Of a stretch of DNA of 64,000 nucleotides, positions 3,896-24,594 are shown in pieces. Where the stretch lies: NCBI RefSeq assembly GCF_002813775.1, contig NZ_CP020370.1, forward strand, positions 1,765,501 to 1,829,500, written 5' to 3'. The position numbers were made by a program, and so were the translations under genes. This DNA is from Candidatus Thiodictyon syntrophicum (lineage in GTDB: Bacteria; Pseudomonadota; Gammaproteobacteria; Chromatiales; Chromatiaceae). Within the stretch, counting starts at the first letter, position 1. Each line of letters starts with the position of its first letter. Below the pieces are notes generated by a model. It searched no databases. It saw only the letters and a program-made list of their open reading frames with translations, and was not told the origin of the DNA.

Positions 3896-5185
3896 ATGTC
3901 TTTCGATTCGCTCGGCCTCAGGGCCGACTTGCTGCGCGCCGTCGCGACGCAGCGCTACGGTCGGCCGACGCCGATCCAGGCGCAAGCCATCCCAGAGATA
4001 CTTGCCGGTCATGATCTATTGGCCGGCGCCCAAACCGGGACCGGTAAGACCGCCGCCTTTGTACTGCCCGTCTTACATCGGTTAGCCGAACAGGGCCATC
4101 CCCAACGCCATCCCCGCGCGCTGATCCTGACGCCGACGCGCGAACTCGCGGCCCAGGTCGGGGAGCGGGTCGCGGCCTACGGCATTCACCTGCCGCTGCG
4201 TTCCGCGATCGTCTTCGGCGGCGTTGGTATGCAGCCCCAAGTCGACAAACTCCAGCGCGGCGTCGATGTCCTGATCGCGACTCCCGGGCGCCTGCTCGAT
4301 CATGCGACCCGCCGCACGGTGGATCTGTCCCGGGTTGAAATCCTGGTGCTGGATGAGGCCGATCGGATGCTCGATATGGGCTTCATCCACGACATCAAAC
4401 GGATCTTGCGCCTGGTTCCGGAGCGGCGGCAAAACCTCCTGTTCTCCGCGACCTACTCAGATGAGATCCGCCGCCTTGCCGATGGCCTGCTCAAGCACCC
4501 CAAGACCGTCGAGGTGGCGGCCCGGCGCAATATGCCGATCGAGGCGGTCGCCCAGTCCGCGCACCCGGTTGACCGGCAGCGTAAGCCCGATTTGTTGGCC
4601 CACCTGATCCATCGCGAGGGTTGGGAGCAGGTACTGGTCTTCACCCGCACCAAGCATGGGGCGAATAAACTCGCCGAGAAGCTCACGCGTGACGGGATCA
4701 CCGCCGCGGCGATCCACGGCAACAAGAGCCAATCGGCGCGCACCCGGGCCCTGGACGAGTTCAAGCGCGGGTTGGTACGGGCCCTGGTGGCGACCGATAT
4801 CGCCGCGCGCGGCCTGGATATCGCCAATCTGCCCCAAGTAGTCAATTTCGAATTGCCGAACGTGGCCGAGGACTATGTCCACCGTATCGGCCGCACCGGC
4901 CGCGCGGGTGCCGTCGGCGCCGCCCTGTCGCTGGTCAGCCATGACGAGAAGGGATTACTCAAGGGGATCGAGCGCCTGTTGCGCCGGGAAATCCCCATGA
5001 CCCCCGTCGTCGGGTTCGAGCCGTCCGCGAATCCGCCGGCCGAGCGCGATGAGGATGACGAGCGCGTGCGCGGGCGCACCGATTTCGCCCCGCGCCCGCG
5101 CAGTGGGCCTCGCGGCGACCGCATGGGCGGGGCGCCGGCCGCGCGGCCGGGTGGCCGGCGTGCCATGCCGGCCCGCGGCCGCTAG
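3896..5185 (+). CDS. rhlE: DEAD-box ATP-dependent RNA helicase RhlE (429 aa)
   Basis: Cytosolic RNA helicase that remodels rRNA and mRNA structure. All core motifs are visible: Q-motif ([11 protein letters not shown], about residue 23), Walker A AQTGTGKT (about 43-50), [22 protein letters not shown] (about 152), SAT, ARGLDIA and [10 protein letters not shown]. The very short lead-in [16 protein letters not shown] and the Q-motif spacing match the RhlE subgroup. The C-terminal 60 residues are low-complexity and rich in R, G, P and D, as in RNA-binding tails of this group. An RRM protein follows about 150 bases downstream in the same direction, a common pairing in cold adaptation. Confidence 0.93.
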
Positions 5186-5338
5186 CCGTCGGTATCGCGT
5201 TGCCGGCTGCCCACGCGGCCTGGCCGCGCCACGATTTCGCCCCAACGGTTGGGGACAAAGACTGTCGAATCAGTTGTGCATTGATCATTCGACCGTTCTC
5301 ACTCTCTCTTCAATGCACTTTGACGGAACACTTGAACG

Positions 5339-10963: not shown

Positions 10964-11061
10964 CCTGTGGGAGCGGCTTGCGCGAGACGGGGCCCGGCAA
11001 GCTGCCGCAGCGTTACAGGTTACCGCGGCGTCGCATCGCGGCTGCAAGCCGCTCCCACGGC
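10964..11061. repeat. REP-like inverted repeat pair
   Basis: Two arms with the motif GTGGGAGCGGCTTGC and its complement GCAAGCCGCTCCCAC enclose about 60 bases. The same GTGGGAGCGGCTT motif recurs at 28.9, 31.8, 37.6 and 55.3 kb. The 3' end of the Res reading frame runs into this repeat and takes its last residues from it. Confidence 0.75.
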
Positions 11062-13595
11062 CTGGTCCCCGAACTGGCCGGCGAGGCCGCTCAGCGTCAT
11101 ATTCTCCGCGATGGCGTCGTGGGGAATCAGCAGATACCGCCAGGGCTTGCCCCCGTGGGCGAGTGCGTGGACGGTGGCGTTGGCGCACCAATTGACGGCG
11201 ACCTCTTTCTTGGCCAGCACCACCGGGTCCTCCAGTTCCTTGCGCATCTTCGGTTCGAGCATGTAGATGGTCGCGTCCGTCTCGGCCACGAAGTCCGGCT
11301 GGTACTCCCGATGATTGGCACCATCACGGTAGTAAATCTGGAACTGCCCTTTGGCAGGGCGAAACCACTTCTGGGCCTCTCGCTCCAGGATCACCGCGAG
11401 CTTACGCTCCGCGTCGGACTCGAATTTCTGTACCGGGTACAGGCAGCGCGCAAAGCCGCCGAACAGGTATCGGCCCATGTTGCTCTTGTCCCGCGGGGCT
11501 ATCCGGTAGTCCGCGGGCGGCTCCGCTACCGCGTAGCTGTAGGCGCTGGGTTTGAGTTCCGTGAAGCCCTTGCTGATCTTCACCTCGTAACCCGCGGCCT
11601 CCTCGAACCAGTGCTCCTGCATCTGGGCATGTATGAAGGCGGCGATGGGCTGCTGATAACAGCGCAGGACCCGGCAAGCGTCGTCCTCCGACAGATAGCC
11701 CAGGAAGTGCCGGACCGTCTGCCCGGCCAGGTCATAGAGCAGGTCCGCATGGCGTACTGTAGCGTCGTTAGATCCAGCGTGAAGGGGTTGAAGCCGGAGC
11801 GCACCTCACCCTTGGGGACCACCAGGATACGCGGCATAGCGATCGTCTGACGGGCGACCAGGTCGACGGTCTTGGCGACCACGGCGGCAATGTCCGGCTC
11901 CTCGGCCAGCCCCTTCAACTCCAACTGCGCCGGGGTACGGCTCTCCTCTACTGCCAGGACGATGGCCGCCTGAACCTCAGGCTTCCTCAGGTGCTCGACC
12001 GTCGGCACCCTCCGGGGATCGCCGCTCAGCTTCTGGATCGCCGCATAGGCCAGTTGCGCCAAGGCTTGCTCCTGCGGCTTCTCGAAGGCGGCGCGTTGGT
12101 CCTGGCCAGCCACTCGGGTGCTGCCGGTCGGTGTCGCGGGTTTGAATCCCAGCCGGCTCGCCAACTGGGACTGGGAAACCATCGTGGCCGTCTTCGTCCC
12201 CACCTGATCCATGTCCAGCACCAAGGTCTGGAGTTGAATCGGCGATCCCGGCCGCTTGGCCTCGTCCACGATCTCCTGAAACCGGTCGTGGGCCACGATG
12301 TTCAGCCGGTCCACCGTGGTCACACCGGTACGCACACCATAGGGCAGGCGCAGCCCGCGGCCGATAGACTGTTCGATCAGCACGCGGGCGTTGGCCGCGC
12401 GCAGCGGCACGATGGTGTAGAGGTTGGTGACGTCCCAGCCCTCCTTGAGCATATTGACGTGGATGACGATCTCGGTGGGTTCCTCCGTGTGCTCGACCTT
12501 GAGCAGGCGTGCGATCATGGCCTCCTCCTCGGCGCCGGTCTTGCTCGAATCCACCTGGATCACCTTGTCCTGGTAGCGCCCCTCGAAAAAGGCCGCGGAC
12601 TGGATCAGGGCCAACAACTGGCCCGCGTGCGTCGTGTCCCGGGCGATGACCAGCACGAAGGGCTTGACGATGGGCTTGTCGAACTGCCGGGCGTAGGTCT
12701 CCAACTCCACCTTGACACCCTCGTGCAGGCGCACCCCATCCTCCAGCTTGAGGCGCTCGATCTCCTCCGTCGACATACCGCTGGGGTCGAAGTCCTTGCG
12801 CGTCACCACCGCGGGCTCCTTGACGAAGCCGTCGGCCATCGCCCGGCCCAGCGGGTAGTCGACGATCACGTTCTTGAAGGGCAGGGTGCCCTTGCTGGTC
12901 TCGACGAACGGCGTCGCCGTCAACTCCAGCCCCAGGATGGGCTTGAGTTCATTGATCGCCCGGATCCCCGCGCCCGCCCGGTAACGGTGCGACTCGTCCA
13001 TCAGAAGCACCAAGTCCGGCAGCCCGGCCAGGTAGTCGAAATAGCTCGCGCCGATGTATTCGGACAACCGCTTGATGCGCGGGGCCTTGCCGCCGCGCAC
13101 CTCGGAGTTGATCTTGGAAATGTTGAAGATGTTGATCCGCACGGAACCGAACAGCCGCCCGCCGGTGACGTTCTGCTGCTCGTAGTTGTCGCCGGTGATG
13201 ACCATCGGCGCTTCGGTCGCAAACTCCGCAATGCCGCGGAAGACATACTTGGGCGTGTTCGGTGTAAAGTCGACGATCAGCTTGTTGTAAATGGTCAGAT
13301 TGGGCGCCAGCACGAAGAAATTGTCGATGCCGTGGGCCAGGTGCAGATAGCTGATGAAGGCGCCCATGAGCCGGGTCTTGCCTACGCCGGTGGCGAGCGC
13401 GAAGCACAGGGACGGGAAGTCCCGCTCGAAGTCCGTGACCGATGGAAACTCACTGCGGATTGTTTCCAGCACCGCAGCGACGTCGGCGCCCTTGCCGGGC
13501 GGCGTTATCTCCATGATCCGGTTCAGGACCTCCAGCGACCGGCGCTGAGGTGGGCGCAGACTCAGACGGCCGGCGATGGCGTTCACATGCGTCAT
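11020..13595 (-). pseudogene. res: Type III-like restriction helicase-nuclease (Res), frameshifted
   Basis: Superfamily 2 helicase with a C-terminal nuclease, the DNA-cleaving partner of the adjacent Mod methyltransferase. The first 620 residues carry Walker A ATGVGKT, the helicase box MDESHRYR, TATPF and GWDVTNLYTIVPLR, plus the motif VI-like EQSIGRGLR. Near position 11750 the frame changes: after FTLDLTTLQYA the conserved text continues in another frame as ADLLYDLAGQTVRHFLGYLS. That frame holds the PD-(D/E)XK site YQPDFVAE...MLEPK. Restoring one base would give about 858 residues. The start overlaps the Mod stop (ATGA). As read, the nuclease domain would not be made; a sequencing error is the main alternative. 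Confidence 0.85.
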
Positions 13596-14809
13596 GGTAG
13601 TTCCTCCGGGCCGAACAGGTCCATCTGCCCCGGCGTCGGCGGCGCACTCGGCAGGTTCTCCACCCGTAGCGAGTAGTCATCATGGCCCCACTCGCAGCGA
13701 GAGAGGACCTGCCGGGGGATCTTTTTCACAGTGAGATTGGAGTACAGGTCCGCACGGGCGCGGAACGAGGTGCAGAGCACCAGGAGGCTGCGCTCCGGCC
13801 CCACCTCGTCGCTCAATTGCGCAAGCTGTTCGTGGGTCAGACTGGCGGTGGTCACATAGACAAAGTCGCGTTCGGTGGAGTGGCCGTGCTGCCAGTAGAC
13901 TGAATCGGATGGGGCATAGCTGAAGCCCTCCAGCTTGCACAGGGCCTCGGTGAGCATGGCGGCGTTGTAGTCGTGGTTGATGACCCAGTTGCCCCAGGTG
14001 TCCTTCTCCAGCAGCGAGGGGGCCAGCCGGTAATAGCGAAAGCCCCCGCCGCCCTTCCAGCCCACGGCCTTGGTGATGCCGCCGGGGTCATCATTGTCGA
14101 TGACCTTTTTGAGCCGCGGGATGATGTGGGTATGGCAGTGCTCGCCCAGTTCCACCATGATCCAGCGGCGGCCCATCTTGTGGGCCACGGCGCCGGTGGT
14201 GCCGGAACCAGCGAAGGAGTCGAGCACGAGGTCGCCTGGGTTGGTGGCGATATGTAATACCCGCTGCATCAGCCGCTCAGGTTTTGGGGTGAGGAACGGG
14301 TCCGCCTTACCGAACAAGCCATGCATCTCCTTTTTTGCTTCATCGGTATGCCCTACTTCTTCATGAGGCCACCAGGTCCATGGCACGAAACCTTCCACTT
14401 CGTCAAGAAACCGAACAATATTCAGATAATGACACTCGTTGTCATCGATGGTAATCCACAAAGACCCATCCTCCGACAACAACCGCCGGATGATCTCCAG
14501 CCGGTCGCGCATCAGCGACAGCCAGATGGAATGCTCCACCCCGTCGTCATAGTGCGTAAAGGCGCTCCCGGTGTTGTACGGCGGATCGATGAAGACGCAC
14601 TTCACCTTGCCCGTGAACTCCGCCTCCAGCGCCTTGAGCGCCAGCAGGTTGTCCCCGAAGATCAGCCGATTGTCGAAGCAGTCACGCTCCGCCACCCGAT
14701 GGGCGGCGTGATAAGACCGCGCCGGGTCCTCCAGCAGGATGCGCGGTTCCAGCCGCGGCCGGTTTTCCTTGCCGATCCAGGTCAGTTCCAGTTTTTGCTT
14801 CGTCGCCAT
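13592..14809 (-). CDS. mod: Type III-like site-specific DNA methyltransferase (Mod), apparently internally deleted (405 aa)
   Basis: N6-adenine-type beta-class methyltransferase. Motif IV DPPYNTG is at about residue 75, and the AdoMet-binding motif I FAGSGTTGAVAHKMGRRW lies near 200, in the order expected for this class. The segment WTWWPHEEVGHTDEAKKEMHGLFG followed by TPKPERLMQRVLHIAT is typical of type III Mod. These blocks normally sit 150 or more residues further from motif IV. Here the text jumps from LNIVRFLDE directly to VEGFVPWTWW, so the target-recognition region appears to be lost in frame. The total is well short of the usual 550-650. It starts 2 bases after the DUF4411 remnant and overlaps Res by 4. 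Activity is doubtful. Confidence 0.8.
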   Translation of the reverse strand: MATKQKLELTWIGKENRPRLEPRILLEDPARSYHAAHRVAERDCFDNRLIFGDNLLALKALEAEFTGKVKCVFIDPPYNTGSAFTHYDDGVEHSIWLSLMRDRLEIIRRLLSEDGSLWITIDDNECHYLNIVRFLDEVEGFVPWTWWPHEEVGHTDEAKKEMHGLFGKADPFLTPKPERLMQRVLHIATNPGDLVLDSFAGSGTTGAVAHKMGRRWIMVELGEHCHTHIIPRLKKVIDNDDPGGITKAVGWKGGGGFRYYRLAPSLLEKDTWGNWVINHDYNAAMLTEALCKLEGFSYAPSDSVYWQHGHSTERDFVYVTTASLTHEQLAQLSDEVGPERSLLVLCTSFRARADLYSNLTVKKIPRQVLSRCEWGHDDYSLRVENLPSAPPTPGQMDLFGPEELP

Positions 14810-14811
14810 GA

Positions 14812-14925
14812 TCAGAAAGTCCAGCCTTGCTGCGCCATGAAGGCTTCCAAGTTAAGACACGGCACACCGAAGTGTTGGCAGACATTCGGCACGATGAAGG
14901 CGCCGGTATCGAATACGTAGATCAT
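14812..14925 (-). pseudogene. DUF4411 (PIN-like) remnant, 37 aa, with the middle missing
   Basis: The frame reads MIYVFDTGAFI, matching the first strand of DUF4411 PIN-like proteins (MIYLLDTN-type). It then passes straight to IVPNVCQHFGVPCLNLEAF, resembling their last 20 residues (PNVC..LGV.C). About 100 central residues are therefore absent without loss of frame. Its ATG overlaps the stop of the HTH-ImmA gene (ATGA), and the Mod start follows 2 bases later, so translational coupling is kept. HTH-ImmA/IrrE with DUF4411 is a known toxin-antitoxin-like pairing; here the presumed effector is gutted. Confidence 0.6.
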
Positions 14926-16097
14926 GCCGGCACCGCGTTACGGAACAGTGCCTCCTCAAGACCCGCGACGCTCTTGGTCCGGACGCCGAGATAGTCCGCA
15001 GTCTGTTCGAGGGTCAATCGCCCTTGATAATGCTTGGCGAAAACGAGCCGCATGTAACCTTCACCGAGGTAGGTCGTCTGGGTCGCATAGTAGTCGCCGC
15101 CGGACCCGCCATTCTCGGTTTCGGCGGCCCACTGCTTGACCTTGGCCTCGTACTTACTTTGGTCGATCAGGCCGCGATCGAGTAATCGGCGCAGGATTGA
15201 CTCCCGGCTCACATGATAGCGTCGCGCCAGTGGTACCGCCGCATCGTCGTATGGTGCAGAAATCCCGGTCAATTGGCTTTCAAAGTCCGCGGAAGGAACC
15301 AGAATCTCGGCCGCAAGCGCGTTGCAGAATCGTTCGATGCCTCGCTCTCTCTGTGGCAATCCTTGAAGATGGGCGTCATCCACGGTCGAGATCGCGTTGA
15401 CCTTCAGCAGCAAATGCGCCAGCTCATGGAAGAGGCTGAAGATCTGGCGGGTCTTGGCGGTACTGTTGTTCAAATAGATGAGCGGGAATTCATCGTCCGC
15501 CAGGCAGAAGCCAGAAATGGTCTTCTGCTTGAAGGAGTGCTTGAAGACAAATACGCCACTGGCTTCTACTGCGCTCCGCCACGCCTTGAGCGCCGCCTCC
15601 GCGCTCTTCCAGCCAATTTGTGCATCCAACGCGATACCGAGGTACGCGCGAACCCTGTCTCCCGCTTGCCGTACGTCGCTTTGCGTGGTCAGCGGCAGGT
15701 CCCGGAAGATCTTGCGCGGCGATGAGTTCACGCCATCGTTCAGCTCGTGCAAGGAAATCTGGTAGGCGTGGGCAAGGCGAAGCTGATAGCGGGTATCCGC
15801 GGCCAGGCGATCAAGCTCGCTGTCGGGCAGGGTGCGAAACTGCTGCTTGACTTTGCGCTCCGCCGGGGGGGCGGGCAGAAAGAAGACTGCGAGCGGCCTC
15901 TTGTACAATCCGTAAACGAGGTTTTCCAGCTGGGCATAGGTCGGACTGGCTGCGCCGGTCTCCCAGGCAACGATCTCGCCGATATCACGCTTGAGGTGAA
16001 TGGCGACATCATCAAGCGAATAGCCCTGAGACTCCCGCGCCCAGCGCAGAACCGCCGGCTGGACACCGAGGGTATGGAATCCAGGCTTCTTGGTCAC
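14922..16097 (-). CDS. XRE-type HTH with ImmA/IrrE metallopeptidase domain (391 aa)
   Basis: Probable DNA-binding regulator with a built-in zinc peptidase. Residues about 13-75 form an XRE helix-turn-helix (AVLRWARESQGYSLDDVAIH). The ImmA/IrrE domain carries the gluzincin site HELAH at 224-228. A further region (about 335-391), with an HTH-like LTLEQTADYLGVRTKSVAGL, follows. In related systems such proteins repress their operon or cleave a partner repressor under stress (family knowledge). It sits 52 bases after the helicase stop and overlaps the DUF4411 remnant by 4 bases, so it is embedded in the defence operon. Confidence 0.9.
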   Translation of the reverse strand: MTKKPGFHTLGVQPAVLRWARESQGYSLDDVAIHLKRDIGEIVAWETGAASPTYAQLENLVYGLYKRPLAVFFLPAPPAERKVKQQFRTLPDSELDRLAADTRYQLRLAHAYQISLHELNDGVNSSPRKIFRDLPLTTQSDVRQAGDRVRAYLGIALDAQIGWKSAEAALKAWRSAVEASGVFVFKHSFKQKTISGFCLADDEFPLIYLNNSTAKTRQIFSLFHELAHLLLKVNAISTVDDAHLQGLPQRERGIERFCNALAAEILVPSADFESQLTGISAPYDDAAVPLARRYHVSRESILRRLLDRGLIDQSKYEAKVKQWAAETENGGSGGDYYATQTTYLGEGYMRLVFAKHYQGRLTLEQTADYLGVRTKSVAGLEEALFRNAVPA

Positions 16098-18367
16098 TCA
16101 TTGCCTCCGTAATGTTCTTGGTTTGCGATATGGCGTCTTTTCATCCGGCTCACTGGATCGACCAGCGAATCGAAAATATCGGTTGGAGCGACAGCGTCTG
16201 CGCCAGTTTCGCTTCGGTCTCTGCGATCAGTCGTTCCCGTTGGCGGTCCACCTCGTCCTGCGCATCGAAAAGCGACCGCCGTTTCCGGCTGCGCTCGGCC
16301 TCCAGGGCCTTGACCTGCCGCTGGCCCACGAGCTTCTCCTCAAGCGTGACGCCAGCGGTGGCCGCGCGGCGTGCCTCCCGAATCTGGCGATCCATTTCCT
16401 TGATTTCTCGTTCCAGTCCGACCTTGAGATCATCGGCCCAGCCGTCGAGCTTTTGCGCCTCGGCATCGAAGAAGCGGGCGTTGCGCTCGGACACCTGGCG
16501 TTCGATGAGGACTCGTTGCCGGGTTGTCTGGGCACCCAGCGCTTCCTCCCTCGGCCGCAGCCCCTCTCCCCCTGGTAGTGGGGAGGAAGAGCCGGGCAGC
16601 GTCATTAGGCGTGCGGCGGCTTCCGGGTCGAGGGACTCACCGTCGTCCGGCACGGCGGCGAAGATCAGATGATCCTCCCCTTGGTCCAGGGATTCTACAC
16701 GGAACAGCGACAGCGATAGCCAGCCGGAGCGACCGATCAGGGGCTCGATGAGGCTGATCTTGCCTGGGTGCCGACCGTAGTCGAATCGAATCTCGGCGGG
16801 CGGCAGATCGCGGCCCTTCGCCTTGGCGAGCAGGGCCTCGGCCAGGGGGTGGTTGAGACGGTAGAGGTGCGCCTCGCCGGAGCGGCGCGGCAGCTCATAG
16901 AGCCCGAGCGGGATCGCGGCATCCGCATCCGGCGGCGCCCGGCGGAGACGGAAGGTAGCATCGCCCAGAAACTCGGCAGCGTCGGTCAGTTCGTGGCGGG
17001 TGAGTTGCATGAGCAGGTGCTCGTAGCGGGTCAGGCTCGCCTTGGCGGTTTCCTCGCGGACCCGCAGCTTCTCGCGCACCTCGTCGTCGAAGTTCTCCAG
17101 GAGTTGGGCGCGGGTACGGGCCATGGAGGTGTCGATCTCGAAGCTCAGCTCCAGTTGGAGTTGGTCGAAGGCGTTCTGGATCTCCTCGGGCCTGCGGCAG
17201 CGCTGATAGATGGCGGCAATACGCTTCTCGAAATCCACCCCGGACTCGATGGCTCCAAGCACCTCGTCGCTAGCGCCGAAGACGCCCTCAAAGAGTTGGA
17301 ACTTCTCGGCGAGCAGTTCATAGACGCGCTGGTCGGCGGCATTCTTGCGGTTGAGGAAGTTGACCACTACCACATCGTGTCGCTGCCCGTAGCGGTGACA
17401 GCGGCCGATGCGCTGCTCGATGCGCTGGGGATTCCAGGGAAGGTCGTAGTTCACCACCAGGGAACAGAATTGGAGGTTGATCCCCTCGGCGCCGGCCTCG
17501 GTGGCGATCATGATGCGGCCCTGGTCGCGGAAGTAGTCCACCAGGGCGGAACGCATGTCAGCGGTCCGCGAGCCGGTGACCCGGTCGGTGCCCTGGTGGC
17601 GCTCGGACCATTGTGTGTAGATGTGGCGGGAACGCTCGTCGGTGTTGGAGCCGTTGAAGAGGACGATCCCCTCTGGGTGGGGACTGTCCGCCAACAGGCG
17701 CAGCAGATAGCTTTGGGTGCGGCGGGACTCGGTGAAGATGATGGCCTTCTCCGGCGCACCCAGCGTCTTGGCCTTGGCGAAGGCGACACCGAGCGCCTTG
17801 AGCAGGGCACGGCCTTTGGCGTTGTGGTCGAAGGAGGCGGCGAGTCGGGCGAAGGCGTCCAGGTCGGCGATCTCACGCTCCAGGGCGGCACGGTCGGTCT
17901 CGCTCAGCGGCTCGGGCGGGGTGTCGTCGGTCCACTCCTCGGCGGTCTCGTCCAGTGCCTCGTAATCCTGGTCCAGGGCCTCTTCCAGCGGCTCGCGGGG
18001 TTCCTTTATCCCCAGCTTGGCCCTGAGCCGGTTGGCAATGGTCGTCAAGGCCCCGGCAATAGCGAAGGTGGACGAGGCCAGGAGCTTGCGCAGGACCAGC
18101 GTCATCAGGGAGCGCTGGCTGGCGGGCAGGGCCTGGAGGTTGTCCCGCTGCAGGTAGTCCGACACCAGGTGGTAAAGCCGGTCCTCGCCCTCTTCGGGGG
18201 TGAATTCCTCCACCAGCGGCAGGCGCTTGGTGAAGGGGACATAGGCGGTGACCTGACGCCGCAGGGTGCGATGGCAAATGGGCTTGAGCCTGGCCTTGAG
18301 GGTGGCGAAGACCTGCGCTTGGGTCAGGTTGGCGAATTGCTCCCGGAAACTTTTTAGATCCCCAAAG

Positions 18368-20095
18368 CTCGACTTTGGCCATTTTAGGCGCATCCGCTCA
18401 TCGTGCCAGCCGCGACCGGCAATCGCGGGGCCAGGGTCCGCACGGCGGACCCTGGGGGACCACGGAGCCAACCCGTCAGGCCCGCTCCGCGGCCCCGGCG
18501 CGGCGGCGCGGCACGCCGCGCGACGCGGCTCAGGCGGTCGCGGCCAGTTGCGCGAGCACGCGCTCCCAGGCGGGGCGGGAAATTACCACCTGATCCTGAT
18601 CCGCAAGCGAGTTGACGTAATTCCCCTCGGCCCAGATGGTGCGGCGCACCAGCGCCAGGCAATCGGAAAAGGTGGCCTGCGGCTTGAAGTACCAAGCGGT
18701 CGAGCGCGGCAAGGACGCCCAGTGCTCACGCAGCCGATGCACCATCAAGCAGACGATGGAAAACAGCGCCAGCAATGCCGGCGTGGTGCGGGCGATGGCC
18801 TTGGCGGCCCATTGGCGCTGGGTCTCGACGCCCAGGTGGCGACGGACCTCGGCGAAGGTGACTTCGATCGACCAGCGCAAGACGAACCATTCGATGACGC
18901 GTACCGACGGCACGGTCAGGTCAGTGGTGAAGAACGCCTCGGCGGCCAGCGGGTCGGCCGGATCGACGACCAATACCCAGCGGATCGGCAGGGGCGGCCA
19001 CCCCGGGGTATGCCAGAGACAGACCCCGCTGAGCAGACGCAGCGTCTTGGTCTCGCCGCGATACCACTGAACCGTGGTCTCGGTGCCGTGCGTACGCGCC
19101 TCCTCCAGGCGTGTGGCCAACTTGGCCAGGGGTGGGCCTTTCTTCGGCTTGGGGCCACGCCGTCCCGGCGGCACCGGTGCGGGCGGCCCGAACAAGCGTG
19201 CATCCAGGCGCAGGCGCGAAATCAGGGCCGCCTGCGCGCTGAGGCACTCCCAGCCCAGGCGCACACAGGAGTAGCTGCCGTCCCCAACGAGGACCCAGCG
19301 GCGGCGCGTGAGCCCGCGCGCCACCAGCCGGACCATGACGAGGGTCCAGTCGATCACGGTCCGATGGGCCTTGCCAGCCGCGACGTTGGCCCGTTGCGAG
19401 GGCGCCAGCAACGTCAGGAACGGCAATGCCCAGGGCCGCCGACTCCACGGCAAGGGGACGATCAACGCCATGCAGATCCATTGCAGGCCCAGACAGGTCA
19501 CCACGCGACTTTTGCTCGAGCGCACGGCATCGCGGTACATCCCCTTGGCAGCAATGCGCGCGCCCTTGCGCCGCTCCAGGGTCTCGTCCACGACGATCAG
19601 CAACGGCCAGCCGGGCGGCAGCAGCGCGATCAGCAGCCCCAGCAGGATCTGCGACCCCTGCACCCCCGACCAGCGCCCGCGACTCAGCACCCGGTGGTAA
19701 CGCTCGAACCGGGGCGCGTGCCCCAGCCCCATGACCCGCAGGGCCGCGGCCACCGTGCGCGGGCCTTGGGCCAGCAACGTGCCGGTCAACAAGACCTGCA
19801 CATGGCGCCAGGTCGGCGCGGTGAACAGCGGCGCAAAGGGCAGCAAAGTCGGTACAATCGAGGCGGGCAGGTGGGGCATCAGGAGGTACGTCCGGTGTCT
19901 TGGTCGACCTCGGAACATACACTGTTGGTGCCCCGCCTGCCTTCCCCCTGCGTGTCCCCGCGTGCCACGGCCACGGGCGGATGCTGGCTGGCCGCGACGA
20001 TCGGCCGCCGCAGCCCCCGCTCAGCACACGCTTCGCCACCACCGCGGCGTCACGCGCGGGGCCGTCGCCCAACTGCAAAAATGGCCAAAGTCGAG
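18368..20095 (-). mobile_element. Insertion sequence (1728 bp) inside the helicase gene
   Basis: Perfect 18-bp terminal repeats CTCGACTTTGGCCATTTT bound the element. A 5-bp target duplication CAAAG lies at 18363-18367 and 20096-20100. It carries a single DDE transposase in the same orientation as the interrupted gene. The repeats and the clean reading-frame restoration show a fairly recent insertion. Confidence 0.92.
18530..19918 (-). CDS. DDE transposase, IS4/IS701-like (462 aa)
   Basis: Transposase of the element at 18368-20095. Candidate catalytic acidic positions are LLIVVDETLERRKG (about residue 110), VLVGDGSYSCVRLG (about 213) and, near the C-terminus, the helix RWSIEVTFAEVRRHLG, which resembles the conserved YREK-type region of IS4-related enzymes. 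It is full length with no frameshift and therefore probably active. The start could also be the in-frame ATG 39 bases downstream (MPHLPASIVP). The family is assigned from motif style only. Confidence 0.8.
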   Translation of the reverse strand: MFRGRPRHRTYLLMPHLPASIVPTLLPFAPLFTAPTWRHVQVLLTGTLLAQGPRTVAAALRVMGLGHAPRFERYHRVLSRGRWSGVQGSQILLGLLIALLPPGWPLLIVVDETLERRKGARIAAKGMYRDAVRSSKSRVVTCLGLQWICMALIVPLPWSRRPWALPFLTLLAPSQRANVAAGKAHRTVIDWTLVMVRLVARGLTRRRWVLVGDGSYSCVRLGWECLSAQAALISRLRLDARLFGPPAPVPPGRRGPKPKKGPPLAKLATRLEEARTHGTETTVQWYRGETKTLRLLSGVCLWHTPGWPPLPIRWVLVVDPADPLAAEAFFTTDLTVPSVRVIEWFVLRWSIEVTFAEVRRHLGVETQRQWAAKAIARTTPALLALFSIVCLMVHRLREHWASLPRSTAWYFKPQATFSDCLALVRRTIWAEGNYVNSLADQDQVVISRPAWERVLAQLAATA

Positions 20096-20770
20096 CAAAG
20101 CTGTGCTCGTCGATGAAGCTGACCAGGCCGAACAGTTCCAGGAGTGAGTTCTGTAAGGGCGTTGCGGTGAGCAACAGCTTGTGCCTGCCGGCCAGGGCCA
20201 GTTTCAGGGTATTGGCGATGACGTTGGACGGTTTGTAGACGTTGCGCAGGCGGTGTGCCTCGTCGATGACCACCAAGTCCCAGGCGGTGGCCTGGACATC
20301 GGCCGCCCGGCTCTTGGCGAACTGGTAGGAGCAGATGACGACCTCGGGCACCTCGAAGGGGCGGAACTGGCCCTGGCGGATCGCGGCGTTGTAAGACTTG
20401 GCCTCAAGGAGTCGGCAGGGCAGGAAGAATTTCTCGGTCAACTCCTGAAACCATTGCTTGCGCAGGTTCGACGGGGTGATGACGAGGATGCGGCGGCGGC
20501 GCTCCGCCCAGCGCTGGGACAGGACCAGACCGGCCTCGATGGTCTTGCCGAGGCCCACTTCATCCGCCAGCAGGGCACCCTTGGACAGGGGGGAGGCGAA
20601 GGCAAACAAGGCCGCATCGACCTGATGGGGGTTGAGGTCGACCTGGGCGCTGGCAACGGCACCAGCGAGCCGCTCGGGACTGTCCGGCGGGAAGCGGCGC
20701 GTCAGTTCAAAGGCGATGTACTTGGTGTGGTAGTCCGTGAGGCTCATGGGTCAACCAGGGCATTGGCCTG

Positions 20771-21511
20771 TCAAGTCAACACGGCAACGCAAGCCGCCCA
20801 CACCTCGGGGTGCTTGGCGCGCAGTTCACAGAATGGGCTCAGGTTCTGACCGGTACCGTAGCGGTACCAGCCCAGCAACCCGTGGTCGTCCACTTCGTCC
20901 AGTTGTTCGCAGAGCGCATCGGCATCAATGGTGTCTTCCTGCAAGGCAAGTTCGACCACTATCAGAATGCGCTTGTGGGTCTTGCGGTAACCGGCCTCCA
21001 AGGCCTCGCGGCGGTCTAGCTGGAGCAGTTCCACGGTTTTCACGCCATGTAACGACGGGGCGTTGGTAGCGAGGTCGAAGCGGGCCACGAAGTTGTAAGT
21101 GTCAGGATTGAAGTCCAGAAAGTCCCAGGGATTGACCGCCGTGGGGTCTACCAGCAGCGGTAATCCGTTCGCATCCAACGGGAAGAGGTTACCCTTGAAG
21201 CGCCCGCACTCAGTACAACAGAGGAGCATATTCGGCCATCCGAACATGCGCCCCGGGTAGGGCGTCTTTGGCCAAAAGTGCTCGATGTCCGTTCCGTGAG
21301 AATCTCCGCAATACATACAGCGCTCGCGCTCCCCCGCCATGGCCTTAAGCGTCTTGAGTACGGTCATCAACGGTTTGGTTTTCCGCGCGCCTTTCCATTC
21401 TCGTTCGATCTTCAAGGTCCCGCTTACCCACTTTTGATCGGCCCTCTGCTGACGCCGATCAAGTGCAAGCTGTGTCGACGCCGGCAGGCGGCTACGTGTG
21501 ACCCGCCGCAT
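20771..21511 (-). CDS. HNH endonuclease, PtuB-like Septu component (246 aa)
   Basis: Probable nuclease effector of a two-gene Septu-type antiphage system. The HNH zinc-finger form is clear: CMYCG (C65, C68), DIEHFWPK with the catalytic-type H78, then PNMLLCCTECGRFKGNLFP with a second cysteine pair. The gene begins 3 bases after the stop of the AAA ATPase, the standard PtuA-PtuB order and spacing. It ends 23 bases before the helicase start. The C-terminal 130 residues match no domain I can name. Confidence 0.82.
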   Translation of the reverse strand: MRRVTRSRLPASTQLALDRRQQRADQKWVSGTLKIEREWKGARKTKPLMTVLKTLKAMAGERERCMYCGDSHGTDIEHFWPKTPYPGRMFGWPNMLLCCTECGRFKGNLFPLDANGLPLLVDPTAVNPWDFLDFNPDTYNFVARFDLATNAPSLHGVKTVELLQLDRREALEAGYRKTHKRILIVVELALQEDTIDADALCEQLDEVDDHGLLGWYRYGTGQNLSPFCELRAKHPEVWAACVAVLT

Positions 21512-21514
21512 TCG

Positions 21515-22816
21515 TCAGGGCTCCTCGTCGCCGGCCGCGAAAATTTCTAGCTGCTTTTCCTTCTCCTTTTCATCCTTGGTAAGCTTGGCGCCGGCCCGCT
21601 GCTTGGCTTGCAGTCCAGCCAGCGTAGCGCGTCCCTCGACAGCCCGCGGGGAGCGCGTGTTTTGCAGGCCGAAGGCCGCCGTGAGCAGGATGGTATCTGG
21701 CCGCGAGGCGATGACTTTCCTATATTCCTGTTCGGTCAGCGCCCTGGGCGATGCGCTGCTGCCCGGTTCCGGCAACACGAAAAGACCGTTGGGATCGGCT
21801 GCCTGGCAAATGATGGGGCTATGGGTGGTGACCAGGAACTGGATGTTGGGGAAGTGCCGCTTGAGCCAGAACCCGATCTCGCGCTGCCATTCCGGGTGCA
21901 GATGGGCATCGACCTCGTCGATGAGGACCACTCCACTGCGTTTGATGCGAAGCGTCCCATCGACTCGCTCGGTCAGCTCCTCGGTGCCGTAAGCGCTGAT
22001 CAGGTGGCGCAGGATGTCCGTGAGCAGGGCCAGGGCCGCGCGATAGCCATCGCTCATCTCCTCCCAGGAGAGTTGCACCCCGTTGCGATCCCTGAGCCAG
22101 AGGCCATCGGAGTCAACGCGATCGACGACGATCTGATTCGGCATCAACTCATCGCGGAGGATCTCAAGCAGCAACTCCAGTTGTGCCCGTTCAGCCGCCC
22201 GGTTTTCCAGTGCCTTGTGGTTGAGATTACGCAGCCACTGATCCACTTCAGCCAGGGAGGCCGCCTCTTGGAACATGGTAACGAAGCGCTCAGTGGAAGG
22301 GGAAACCATCTGGCGTGCGGTCTCGGGGGAGGCGCCGAAGACCCGGCGGAAGGGGCCGTAGCCGCAGGAGAACCAGCCCTTGGCATCGTTCGACCAGATG
22401 CTGCGATCCGGGGTCACATAGTTCCTTTGGTTCTGCTTCTCGGCGGGAATGATGGATTGAAGCGAGACCTCCCGGCCGCCGTTGATAAAGACCAGCTTTG
22501 CCGGAAAGCTCGTCAGGGTTGTTCGACCAGAGTCCGCGAACGAGTCATCCTCAGGGCGTCTTACGATCTCCAACTGAATCGACGCTTCGCCGCCGCTGCC
22601 ATCACGAATCCAACCCTTAAAGCTTGTTTGCAGCGCCCGGGCTGTATCTTTGCCGGCGAGAGCAATCGCAACGGCCTTCAACAGGGTGCTCTTGCCGGAA
22701 CCGTTATCGCCGGTGAAGACTGTCCACCCCGCGTAGCTGCCATCGGGCCGACCGAGGTCGAACGCCAGATCGGCGAAGCCGCGGACGTTCTTCAGGATCA
22801 CCTTGCCGATATACAT
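21515..22816 (-). CDS. AAA/ABC-type ATPase, PtuA-like Septu component (433 aa)
   Basis: Single-chain SMC/ABC-like ATPase of the AAA_21 kind (MYIGKVILKNVRGFADL start). Walker A is GDNGSGKST (about residues 31-39), a signature-like WEEMSDGYRAALAL precedes Walker B GVVLIDEVDAHLHPEWQ (about 297), and the His-switch lies in LVTTHSP. The start at 22816 is chosen because GGGGAGG lies 6 bases upstream. In Septu, PtuA assembles with the HNH protein PtuB and gates its nuclease activity through ATP (family knowledge). It follows the DUF262 gene by 59 bases. Confidence 0.85.
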   Translation of the reverse strand: MYIGKVILKNVRGFADLAFDLGRPDGSYAGWTVFTGDNGSGKSTLLKAVAIALAGKDTARALQTSFKGWIRDGSGGEASIQLEIVRRPEDDSFADSGRTTLTSFPAKLVFINGGREVSLQSIIPAEKQNQRNYVTPDRSIWSNDAKGWFSCGYGPFRRVFGASPETARQMVSPSTERFVTMFQEAASLAEVDQWLRNLNHKALENRAAERAQLELLLEILRDELMPNQIVVDRVDSDGLWLRDRNGVQLSWEEMSDGYRAALALLTDILRHLISAYGTEELTERVDGTLRIKRSGVVLIDEVDAHLHPEWQREIGFWLKRHFPNIQFLVTTHSPIICQAADPNGLFVLPEPGSSASPRALTEQEYRKVIASRPDTILLTAAFGLQNTRSPRAVEGRATLAGLQAKQRAGAKLTKDEKEKEKQLEIFAAGDEEP

Positions 22817-22875
22817 GGGCCCTCCCCTTGTCTGTGGTGGTGAATCGATCGGATCCGGCTCATTTCGATGACTCG

Positions 22876-24594
22876 TTACGCCAGTTGCGCGATGCGCCAG
22901 ATCGAGGTGGCCTGGTTGGCCATCCAGACCTGACGGGCGGCGATGCGCTCGGGCGTCCATTCGGCGTAGTCCTGCGCCAAGAGATGGGTGATGGCAAAAC
23001 CGCTGCGCGCGTAGGCGGTGCGCTTGACCGGGTATGGGGCATTACCCAGGTCCCGGTTGGCCCCCGCCTGCATCAGGGTCAGATTGCCCAGGCGGTCGGC
23101 CAGGGCCTCGGCCTCTGCGTCCGTGAAGCCGTTCCAACCCGCCTGTGCATTCTGGGGCAAGACGTGCTCCAGGGTGAAGGCATCGCTGGTGAAATCGTAG
23201 TCGTGTTCCGGTGCCAGGTGACGCTCCAGGGCACAAAGGATGTAGCGGGCCACGCGGTTATTGCGCGATTGGGTGGTGCGAATGGTCTTGTCGGCGAAGG
23301 CGGCGCGAAAGGCGGCATCGTTTGGGTAGACGCCGGTCATGGCGGTCAGGGCGACGCTTAAGGACGGGATCTCGCTGCGGGCGATGCGCTCGGCAACCGC
23401 GTTGTAGGTGCGCTCCTGCTCGGCCGGGCTGTAGCCGCAGATGACGTTGTAGCGTAGCGAGATGACGACGCAGGTGCGCACCAGGCCGATGAATTCGGTT
23501 TCCGCAAAGTGGCGCCTGGCCGACAGGAGCAGGGGGAAGGGCTGGCGCACATTGAAGGTGCGCAGGGTGCCGGCCAGGGCCTTGAGTTCCCGCGGCCAGT
23601 CGGAAAGTTCCGGGGACGACAGGGCCAGATAGGTATCCAGGTCCTCTTCCATGTCGCGCAGGAGTTGGAAGACGGCCTCGCGGGTCTTGACCTGGCCGCG
23701 AATCGTCTTGAACAACTCGGCCTGGCGCGCGAAGGGGCGGCGGCTGTTCCAATGCACGCGCAGGAAGTCGGGAAAGCTCTCGGCCCCCAGGCGCCCGACC
23801 ATGGCCTCCCAGCGCCCTTCCAGGTTGCGCAACTCATGGTCGTTTTGCCCGCCCCGGTCCAGCACCGAGAACAGGTAGTTCTTGAGCAGGTCGGTGGCGG
23901 AGAGTCTCACCCCGCGGGCGTTGAGGGTCTCGAAGACCTTGTAGGCGTTCAACTCGTCGGTCACGGTGATGACGGTGAAGAAGAGCCGGTCGGTCAGGTC
24001 CTCGGCCAGTTGGGCCAGACGCGGGCCCTGGTCTGCGGTCTCCTGTTTGAGGCCCTCCCCAATGCGCTTGTCGAACCACTCGAAGGCCTTGCGCAACAGG
24101 TGCTCGGAGGCCCGGAAGCCGCGGCGCGGCAAGTGCCCCAGGGGGACGAGATAGTCCTGGAAGTAGCTGTTGTTGTTGCGGTTGAGGGTCAGCTTGGGGC
24201 GCGAGACCAGGGTGACGGGGTCGAGATAGCCGATGTAGGTCTGGCGGATCTGGGTGATGCGCCGGGCGTTGTCCGCCGGCTCTTTGCCCGCGTCGACCAG
24301 GCGTTGCAGGTGTTTGAGGATAGCCAGGATGATGATGGTAACCGTGGTCAGGCGCTGTTGGCCGTCGATGACCTCGAAGGTCTTATCGTCGGGTGACTGG
24401 AGGACCAGATAGCCCAGATAGTGGGCCGGCTCGCCGTCGGGTTGCAGGGTGCCCTGCAGGTCCAGCCACAGGTCCTCCCATTCCTCGTCGGTCCAACTGT
24501 AATCGCGCTGGAACCGGGGGATGCGGTAGCTCAGGCCGTTGCCGATGAGCTTGCGGAAGGTATTGTTCTCGGTCTTGAAGTTGGTTGCGGCCAT
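22876..24594 (-). CDS. DUF262/DUF1524 protein, GmrSD/type IV restriction-like (572 aa)
   Basis: Two-domain protein related to nucleases that target modified phage DNA. The N-terminal DUF262 (ParB-like) domain shows YRIPRFQRDYSW (about residue 22) and VIDGQQRLTTV (about 75), the nucleotide-binding signature. The C-terminal DUF1524 HNH-type region has FTLEHVLPQNAQ and DRLGNLTLMQAGANR. No deletion is evident. It is the first gene of the leftward defence run, so its upstream region (24595-24751) should hold the operon promoter. Whether it works with the neighbouring ATPase/HNH pair or independently is unknown. Confidence 0.88.
   Translation of the reverse strand: MAATNFKTENNTFRKLIGNGLSYRIPRFQRDYSWTDEEWEDLWLDLQGTLQPDGEPAHYLGYLVLQSPDDKTFEVIDGQQRLTTVTIIILAILKHLQRLVDAGKEPADNARRITQIRQTYIGYLDPVTLVSRPKLTLNRNNNSYFQDYLVPLGHLPRRGFRASEHLLRKAFEWFDKRIGEGLKQETADQGPRLAQLAEDLTDRLFFTVITVTDELNAYKVFETLNARGVRLSATDLLKNYLFSVLDRGGQNDHELRNLEGRWEAMVGRLGAESFPDFLRVHWNSRRPFARQAELFKTIRGQVKTREAVFQLLRDMEEDLDTYLALSSPELSDWPRELKALAGTLRTFNVRQPFPLLLSARRHFAETEFIGLVRTCVVISLRYNVICGYSPAEQERTYNAVAERIARSEIPSLSVALTAMTGVYPNDAAFRAAFADKTIRTTQSRNNRVARYILCALERHLAPEHDYDFTSDAFTLEHVLPQNAQAGWNGFTDAEAEALADRLGNLTLMQAGANRDLGNAPYPVKRTAYARSGFAITHLLAQDYAEWTPERIAARQVWMANQATSIWRIAQLA

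What the first reader, a model, noticed from the sequence alone, without database searches (positions are those of the whole stretch)
11020..24594. Eight-gene composite defence run joining Septu-like, DUF262 and type III-like Mod/Res modules
Seen: eight leftward genes with gaps of 60 bases or less or ATGA overlaps: DUF262/DUF1524, PtuA-like ATPase, PtuB-like HNH, SNF2/RapA-like helicase, HTH-ImmA/IrrE, DUF4411 relic, Mod, Res. Known: Septu (PtuAB), DUF262 type IV-like enzymes and helicase-Mod-Res clusters are each described separately. Inference: the tight spacing suggests one transcript and possibly one layered system, with the ImmA/IrrE protein as a switch. The downstream half is damaged in four genes while the first three look intact.
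Basis: partly seen in the sequence, partly recalled or inferred. Interest (0 to 1): 0.72.

Follow-up and report, generated by a model that had tools for sequence, protein, structure and literature searches.

The report
Decayed restriction operon carrying swappable defences
This purple sulfur bacterium holds a broken copy of a widespread helicase-plus-restriction operon into which bacteria slot and swap other anti-virus systems, and the two systems at its front still look usable.

Summary
The run is real: coordinates, domains, tight gaps and damage in four genes are confirmed (IS element in the helicase, internal deletions in DUF4411 and Mod, frameshift in Res). The best reading is not one eight-part machine. 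A DrmD-like SNF2 helicase, a type III-like Mod and a Res form a conserved core found in several phyla. Other defence genes sit at fixed places in it: between helicase and Mod (-16 to 7,510 bp, 68 loci), between Mod and Res (-35 to 1,554 bp, 45 loci), and sometimes before the helicase. Cargo includes Septu, GmrSD, a Kiwa KwaB gene, IetAS, SIR2-HerA and toxin-antitoxin-like pairs. Helicase and Res distances correlate (r=0.93, 34 loci); the kind of cargo in the first slot shows no signal on the helicase tree (47 loci). In seven close pairs with different cargo, DNA similarity stops near the helicase stop and resumes at the Mod start. GmrSD and PtuAB are cargo of this core; GmrSD also adjoins helicase or Mod in other genomes, but GmrSD-PtuA-PtuB-helicase is intact only here. 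Embedding of defences is already a published idea; I found no paper describing this platform, in a limited open-access library.

The parts
22876..24594 (-). GmrSD-like (DUF262+DUF1524) protein, 572 aa, open; cargo before the helicase; matches PADLOC HEC-06
   Evidence: HEC-06 757 bits; dN/dS 0.12-0.15 against L078 and L098
21515..22816 (-). PtuA ATPase of Septu, open; cargo
   Evidence: PtuA1 547 bits; dN/dS 0.14 against L098
20771..21511 (-). PtuB HNH protein of Septu, 246 aa, open; cargo
   Evidence: PtuB1 125 bits; no Pfam hit at 0.01
20097..20747 (-). 5' part of the DrmD-like SNF2 helicase (core gene 1)
   Evidence: 99% protein identity to L021
18367..20096 (-). IS element in the helicase; transposase ORF 18530-19918
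   Evidence: 19-bp inverted repeats; PF13546 DDE_5; five full-length 100% identical copies in the genome
16150..18366 (-). 3' part of the DrmD-like SNF2 helicase
14922..16097 (-). HTH-ImmA/IrrE protein, open; cargo in the helicase-Mod slot
   Evidence: PF06114; RmrA 73 bits; 94% to L021
14812..14925 (-). DUF4411 remnant, 37 codons after an in-frame internal deletion shared with G007
   Evidence: PF14367
13592..14809 (-). Mod methyltransferase (core gene 2), internal deletion
   Evidence: PF01555; MTase_III 635 bits
11020..13595 (-). Res helicase-nuclease (core gene 3), broken by a frameshift into ORFs 11580-13595 and 11020-11622
   Evidence: ORFs; PF04851; REase_III 450 and 175 bits for the two pieces

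Best explanation
The locus is a decaying copy of a cargo-carrying restriction operon. Its core is a DrmD-like SNF2 helicase, a Mod methyltransferase and a Res helicase-nuclease. Shown by comparison: the core genes stay together across several phyla, and unrelated defence genes are placed and replaced at fixed slots in or just before the core, with boundaries at gene ends. Inferred: Mod marks host DNA; Mod-Res cuts unmarked DNA in the type III manner; the SNF2 protein helps by translocating or remodelling DNA; cargo is exchanged mainly by recombination in the conserved helicase 3' end and Mod 5' end. In this genome GmrSD and PtuA-PtuB sit before the helicase and ImmA-DUF4411 in the helicase-Mod slot. 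Cargo probably acts on its own: GmrSD would cut modified phage DNA that the core cannot handle, as BrxU does beside BREX, and PtuAB would be a separate ATPase-nuclease. Here the core is broken and the DUF4411 partner of ImmA is gone, while GmrSD and PtuAB are open and may still work.
For: 99 helicase loci (80, 18 non-duplicates, the window): 68 have a called Mod ORF and 51 a called Res ORF in the held stretch; of the 31 without a Mod ORF, 24 have under 3.5 kb left after the helicase and tblastn sees Mod sequence in five of the other seven (L031 fragment, L044, L046, L067, L127). Class sample of 369 genomes: 20 others have the helicase at E<=1e-100; Mod sequence follows in 16 of those 20, three others run out of contig. 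Cargo families. Slot-A cargo class on the helicase tree: 32 changes on 47 rows, shuffled mean 33.2, 62 of 200 shuffles at or below. Mantel r with helicase: Res 0.93 (n=34, 0 of 2000), Mod 0.57 (n=35). In the 7 of 11 compared pairs whose slot contents differ throughout, DNA similarity ends 5-85 bp before the helicase stop and resumes within 22 bp of the Mod ORF start. Named plasmids: Deinococcus SNF2-AIPR-HTH-VapC-Mod-Res, Rhizobium SNF2-Mod-DUF262-Res, Cupriavidus SNF2-Mod-Res. GmrSD lies before the helicase in L078 and directly before Mod in L014, L079, L181 and L182.
Against: No functional data. Slot-B cargo keeps phylogenetic signal (14 changes on 36 rows against 20.0 shuffled, 0 of 200), and SMC-like AAA cargo correlates weakly with the helicase (r=0.53, p=0.04; the other cargo families tested -0.27 to 0.51, p 0.06-0.95; n 5-10). 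18 of 65 slot-A rows and 8 of 44 slot-B rows were dropped as unclassed. Of 6 other GmrSD homologues in the class sample only one (L147) lies by Mod-Res, and there no helicase was found. Of 7 family genomes with GmrSD at least 70% identical, 3 show it by helicase or Mod, 1 beside PtuA on another contig than the core, 1 at a contig end, 2 alone (G002, G028) (a partial eighth place, G005:C47, was not inspected). L042 and L146 have helicase and Res sequence but no Mod.
Confidence: 0.74

Rival explanations
1. One layered eight-gene system in a single transcript, in which the ImmA/IrrE protein senses infection and releases the other modules.
For: All genes co-directional with gaps of 59 bp or less. 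Two congeners carry traces of PtuB before the helicase: L021, 28 of 29 bases, score 51 against a maximum of 29 in 300 shuffles; L078, 7 of 14 residues, score 42 against a maximum of 41 in 500 shuffles, but not significant at DNA level (score 18, 95% of shuffles below 20).
Against: ImmA is near-complete in only 7 of 99 helicase loci; loci such as L002 have the helicase directly before Mod; cargo turns over while the core persists. Congener G007 has no PtuB trace before its helicase.
Confidence: 0.1
2. An ordinary defence island: independent systems that landed side by side, with no slot rule.
For: Defence genes cluster in general; some close GmrSD homologues (G002, G028) stand alone.
Against: Strand agreement inside against outside the core (p=5.8e-13), cargo at fixed positions, breakpoints at gene ends, and the same cargo families recurring in the same slots of distant bacteria.
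Confidence: 0.12
3. A divergent class 1 DISARM whose DrmD is the helicase.
For: The best NCBIfam model for intact relatives is DISARM_DrmD_b (690 and 695 bits).
Against: Both are below the curated cut-off of 950. No DrmA- or DrmB-like gene is among the window's pieces; the nearest MZB/DUF1998 domain in this genome is about 31 kb from the locus.
Confidence: 0.04

Closest known systems
Defences embedded in other defences: Hma-embedded candidates (HEC) and 'guilt by embedding' (Payne et al. 2024 preprint; not held in the library, known to me only through PMC12988326 passages and the PMC12137116 reference list)
   Same: Foreign defence genes lie inside a host defence operon; the window's GmrSD matches HEC-06 at 757 bits; many cargo genes match PADLOC PDC families.
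   Different: The host operon here is a DrmD-like helicase with type III-like Mod and Res, not Hma. I could not check whether the preprint already lists this host.
BREX with BrxU (PMC8565348, passages read)
   Same: A modification-based system with a GmrSD-type enzyme beside it; the two give complementary phage protection there.
   Different: No PglZ or BrxC was seen among the window's pieces; the core is Mod-Res plus an SNF2 helicase.
DISARM class 1 (DrmD)
   Same: SNF2 helicase of the DrmD type next to a DNA methyltransferase.
   Different: DrmD cut-off not reached; no DrmA or DrmB in the locus; a Res subunit is present.
Type III restriction-modification (EcoP15I type; PMC4490356 and PMC4005696 seen in a search listing only)
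   Same: Adjacent or nearby Mod and Res; PADLOC type III models match both.
   Different: An extra SNF2 helicase leads the operon, and cargo separates Mod from helicase and often from Res.
Septu type I
   Same: PtuA ATPase and PtuB HNH, adjacent.
   Different: Carried as cargo of a restriction core.

Membership tests
Septu type I | Adjacent PtuA-type ATPase and PtuB-type HNH genes | tested here: met
   PtuA1 547 bits, PtuB1 125 bits; 3-bp gap; AAA_21. The NCBIfam PtuA/PtuB models are retron Ec78 equivalogs and were not reached.
Septu type I | Phage protection | not testable with these tools
   no experiment
GmrSD / type IV restriction | DUF262 fused to DUF1524 | tested here: met
   PF03235 132 bits, PF07510 98 bits, both over cut-off
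GmrSD / type IV restriction | Cleavage of modified DNA | not testable with these tools
   no experiment
Type III restriction-modification | Mod methyltransferase and Res helicase-nuclease genes | tested here: met
   MTase_III 635 bits, REase_III 450 and 175 bits for the broken copies; open copies in relatives such as L006, of 540 and 896 aa
Type III restriction-modification | Cutting between head-to-head unmodified sites | not testable with these tools
   no experiment
DISARM | DrmD helicase at the curated cut-off | tested here: not met
   690 and 695 bits against 950 in two intact relatives
DISARM | drmA and drmB in the operon | tested here: not met
   absent from the locus pieces; nearest MZB/DUF1998 domain about 31 kb away
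Hma | HmaA helicase, HmaB methylase, HmaC ATPase | tested here: not met
   The helicase pieces match DrmD better than HmaA (189 and 458 against 81 and 88 bits); the methyltransferase's listed best matches are type III, and no HmaB or HmaC is among the listed best hits
IrrE/ImmA-DUF4411 toxin-antitoxin-type pair | HTH-COG2856 gene overlapping a PIN-like DUF4411 gene | tested here: inconclusive
   Pair present beside 5 of 6 other near-complete ImmA genes; DUF4411 deleted in the window. That DUF4411 is PIN-like rests on PMC8790059 (table passage); the fold prediction was poor (mean pLDDT 45); two solved DUF4411 proteins exist (9vzy, 9vzz)

The most novel reading that the evidence does not exclude
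The helicase-Mod-Res core is a general docking operon for bacterial immunity. Recombination in its conserved helicase and Mod ends lets bacteria of different phyla swap whole, ready-made antiphage systems into one transcribed slot, with the restriction core guarding against loss and the cargo covering phages that evade restriction. When the core decays, as here, the cargo can outlive it.
Probability: 0.45. Interest if true: 0.75.

Novelty: new variant of a known kind. Interest (0 to 1): 0.6.

Why it matters
If right, a simple rule (look between this helicase and its Mod, and between Mod and Res) would point to new defence genes in several phyla and on conjugative plasmids, and would give a natural series of nearly identical cores with different cargo in which to ask whether embedded defences cooperate with, or only travel with, a restriction system.

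Tried and rejected
A single conserved eight-gene system: rejected because helicase and Res stay while neighbours change. DISARM: rejected on cut-off and missing genes. A fold for DUF4411 gave mean pLDDT 45, so no fold search was made. A wider search for this PtuA clade found none beside the window's own among 369 class genomes at E<=1e-100, so its usual context could not be counted. The idea that only the first three genes are under selection was tested by dN/dS: intact and broken genes alike show 0.03-0.35, so the breakage is young relative to the divergence from congeners; PtuB has no close relative to compare. The consensus promoter/terminator scan found no more sites than its shuffles (2 promoters against 2.0, 7 terminators against 9.3) and decides nothing about one transcript. 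Literature: ten searches gave no description of this core; the library is open-access PMC only and the key preprint is not held.
Full report
WHAT IS THERE. The window is contig 1, bases 1765501-1829500, of a 7.74-Mb genome in three contigs. A same-genus genome (G006) has a contig of the same length (8,428 bases) as L021 and the same helicase place and identity, and L021 is titled uncultured Thiodictyon, so the host is a Thiodictyon-like Chromatiaceae; the species name is not given by any search. The helicase is interrupted by an IS element with 19-bp perfect inverted repeats whose five full-length copies in the genome are identical. DUF4411 and Mod have in-frame internal deletions and Res is frameshifted. 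GmrSD, PtuA, PtuB and ImmA/IrrE are open.

THE CORE. In a sample of 369 class genomes 20 others carry it, and Mod sequence follows in 16 of those 20; three of the other four run out of contig and one (L146) has helicase and Res only. Over 99 loci (80, plus 18 after dropping two duplicates, plus the window), 68 have a called Mod ORF and 51 a called Res ORF. Of the 31 without a Mod ORF, 24 have under 3.5 kb left; of the other seven, tblastn sees Mod sequence in five (a fragment only in L031) and none in L042 and L146. Three named plasmids show the order under public annotation, and 45 plasmid records hold the helicase, all below 60% identity.

THE SLOTS. Between helicase and Mod lie -16 to 7,510 bp (median 2,352; 7 of 68 under 200 bp) and between Mod and Res -35 to 1,554 bp (median 886; 14 of 45 under 200 bp). 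Cargo families identified by profile in the first slot: SMC-like AAA, AIPR, DUF2130, PHP-SMC, AlbA_2-RecG, AAA_21 with DUF4276, HTH-IrrE with DUF4411, HTH-IrrE of a second kind, TcmP-like with DUF5131, IetA-IetS, SIR2-HerA, AAA_13, PDC-S06, PDC-M28, KwaB of Kiwa, Fic, RmuC, Bro-N, PtuA-PtuB, GmrSD; in the second: YhcG/DUF1016, RhuM, zeta-like kinase, PDDEXK_3. Each name was tested on one or two representatives and extended by BLAST clustering. Some loci have a gene tight before the helicase: a WYL protein in L035 with cluster mates in L127, L135 and L140.

TURNOVER. On a helicase tree the first-slot class changes 32 times over 47 rows against 33.2 in shuffles (62 of 200 at or below), so no signal; the second slot keeps signal (14 over 36 rows against 20.0; 0 of 200). 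Eighteen of 65 and eight of 44 rows were dropped as unclassed. Helicase and Res distances correlate at r=0.93 (n=34), helicase and Mod at 0.57 (n=35); six cargo families give -0.27 to 0.53, only SMC-like AAA at p=0.04. I compared 11 close pairs at DNA level: in the 7 whose slots differ throughout, similarity stops 5-85 bp before the helicase stop and resumes within 22 bp of the called Mod start. Helicases about 93-96% identical can carry AIPR, SMC-like AAA, or DUF2130 with AAA_13 (L068, L024, L070).

THE WINDOW AS A CASE. PtuA is present in 3 and GmrSD in 5 of the 99 loci, the window and the distant L135 (24%) counted. In the same family I inspected 7 other genomes with GmrSD at least 70% identical: G005 (the L078 genome) has it before the helicase, G424 and G053 directly before Mod, G006 beside a PtuA cut short, with the core on another contig, G007 at a contig end, and G002 and G028 alone. 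Before the helicase L021 keeps a 28-of-29-base match to the end of PtuB (score 51, shuffle maximum 29). L078 has a 14-residue match (score 42, maximum 41 in 500 shuffles) that is not significant as DNA. G007 shows no such trace. So GmrSD-PtuAB-helicase probably existed in a common ancestor of some congeners, but is intact only here. The DUF4411 deletion is shared with G007 (11 of 114 bases different); the Mod deletion and the split Res are not seen in G007 or L021. dN/dS against congeners is 0.03-0.35 for intact and broken genes alike, so most damage is young.

HOW IT LIKELY WORKS. By family knowledge (inference, not shown here), Mod methylates host sites and Mod-Res cuts unmarked DNA. The SNF2 protein's task is unknown; translocation or remodelling is my guess. 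GmrSD-type enzymes cut modified DNA, and BrxU with BREX gives complementary protection (PMC8565348, passages read). ImmA/IrrE with DUF4411 looks like a toxin-antitoxin-type cassette (PMC2701414 and PMC8790059, passages read): 5 of 6 other near-complete ImmA genes in the set have DUF4411 behind them.

NOVELTY. Embedding of defences is known: HEC-06, the family of this GmrSD, is an Hma-embedded candidate with reported antiviral activity (PMC12988326, passages read, citing a preprint I could not read). PMC8565338 (passages read) reports that Hma often occurs with Septu type I. The core seen here is not DISARM by two tests and not Hma. Ten literature searches found no description of it. I rate it a new variant of a known kind.

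Noticed in passing
G000:C1 about 596500-610000 (L095): The same genome has a second Septu (PtuB1 366 bits; PtuA 37% to the window's) lying between HmaB- and HmaA-like genes with HmaC beyond: an Hma operon with embedded Septu (213, 229 and 119 bits for HmaA, B, C). Similar PtuA-helicase neighbourhoods were mapped in G002, G005, G006 and G007.
   Followed up: partly
18367-20096: The IS element in the helicase has five full-length, 100% identical copies in this genome, one on contig C2, so it moved recently.
   Followed up: partly
L098 (G006:C293), about 3970-5312: PtuA of a congener is cut short and followed by a 415-aa transposase-like ORF (the family label ISL3 is my recall, not from a call).
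   Followed up: no
L050, L059, L138, L141, L142: A variant of the core with a Mod of about 1,030-1,140 aa and no Res hit; in L141 and L142 a gene of about 1,080-1,115 aa lies further downstream. May be a second, single-chain type of the platform.
   Followed up: no
L147 (G193:C1:2339500-2359499): GmrSD (74%), an IetS gene, Mod and Res in a row with no helicase hit: the core without its helicase.
   Followed up: partly
G000:C1:1745544-1745693: An MZB/DUF1998 domain about 20 kb left of the window; possibly another defence gene.
   Followed up: no
L154 (Rhizobium plasmid p7, NZ_CP072872.1): A DUF262 protein sits between Mod and Res, so DUF262 cargo can also use the second slot.
   Followed up: no
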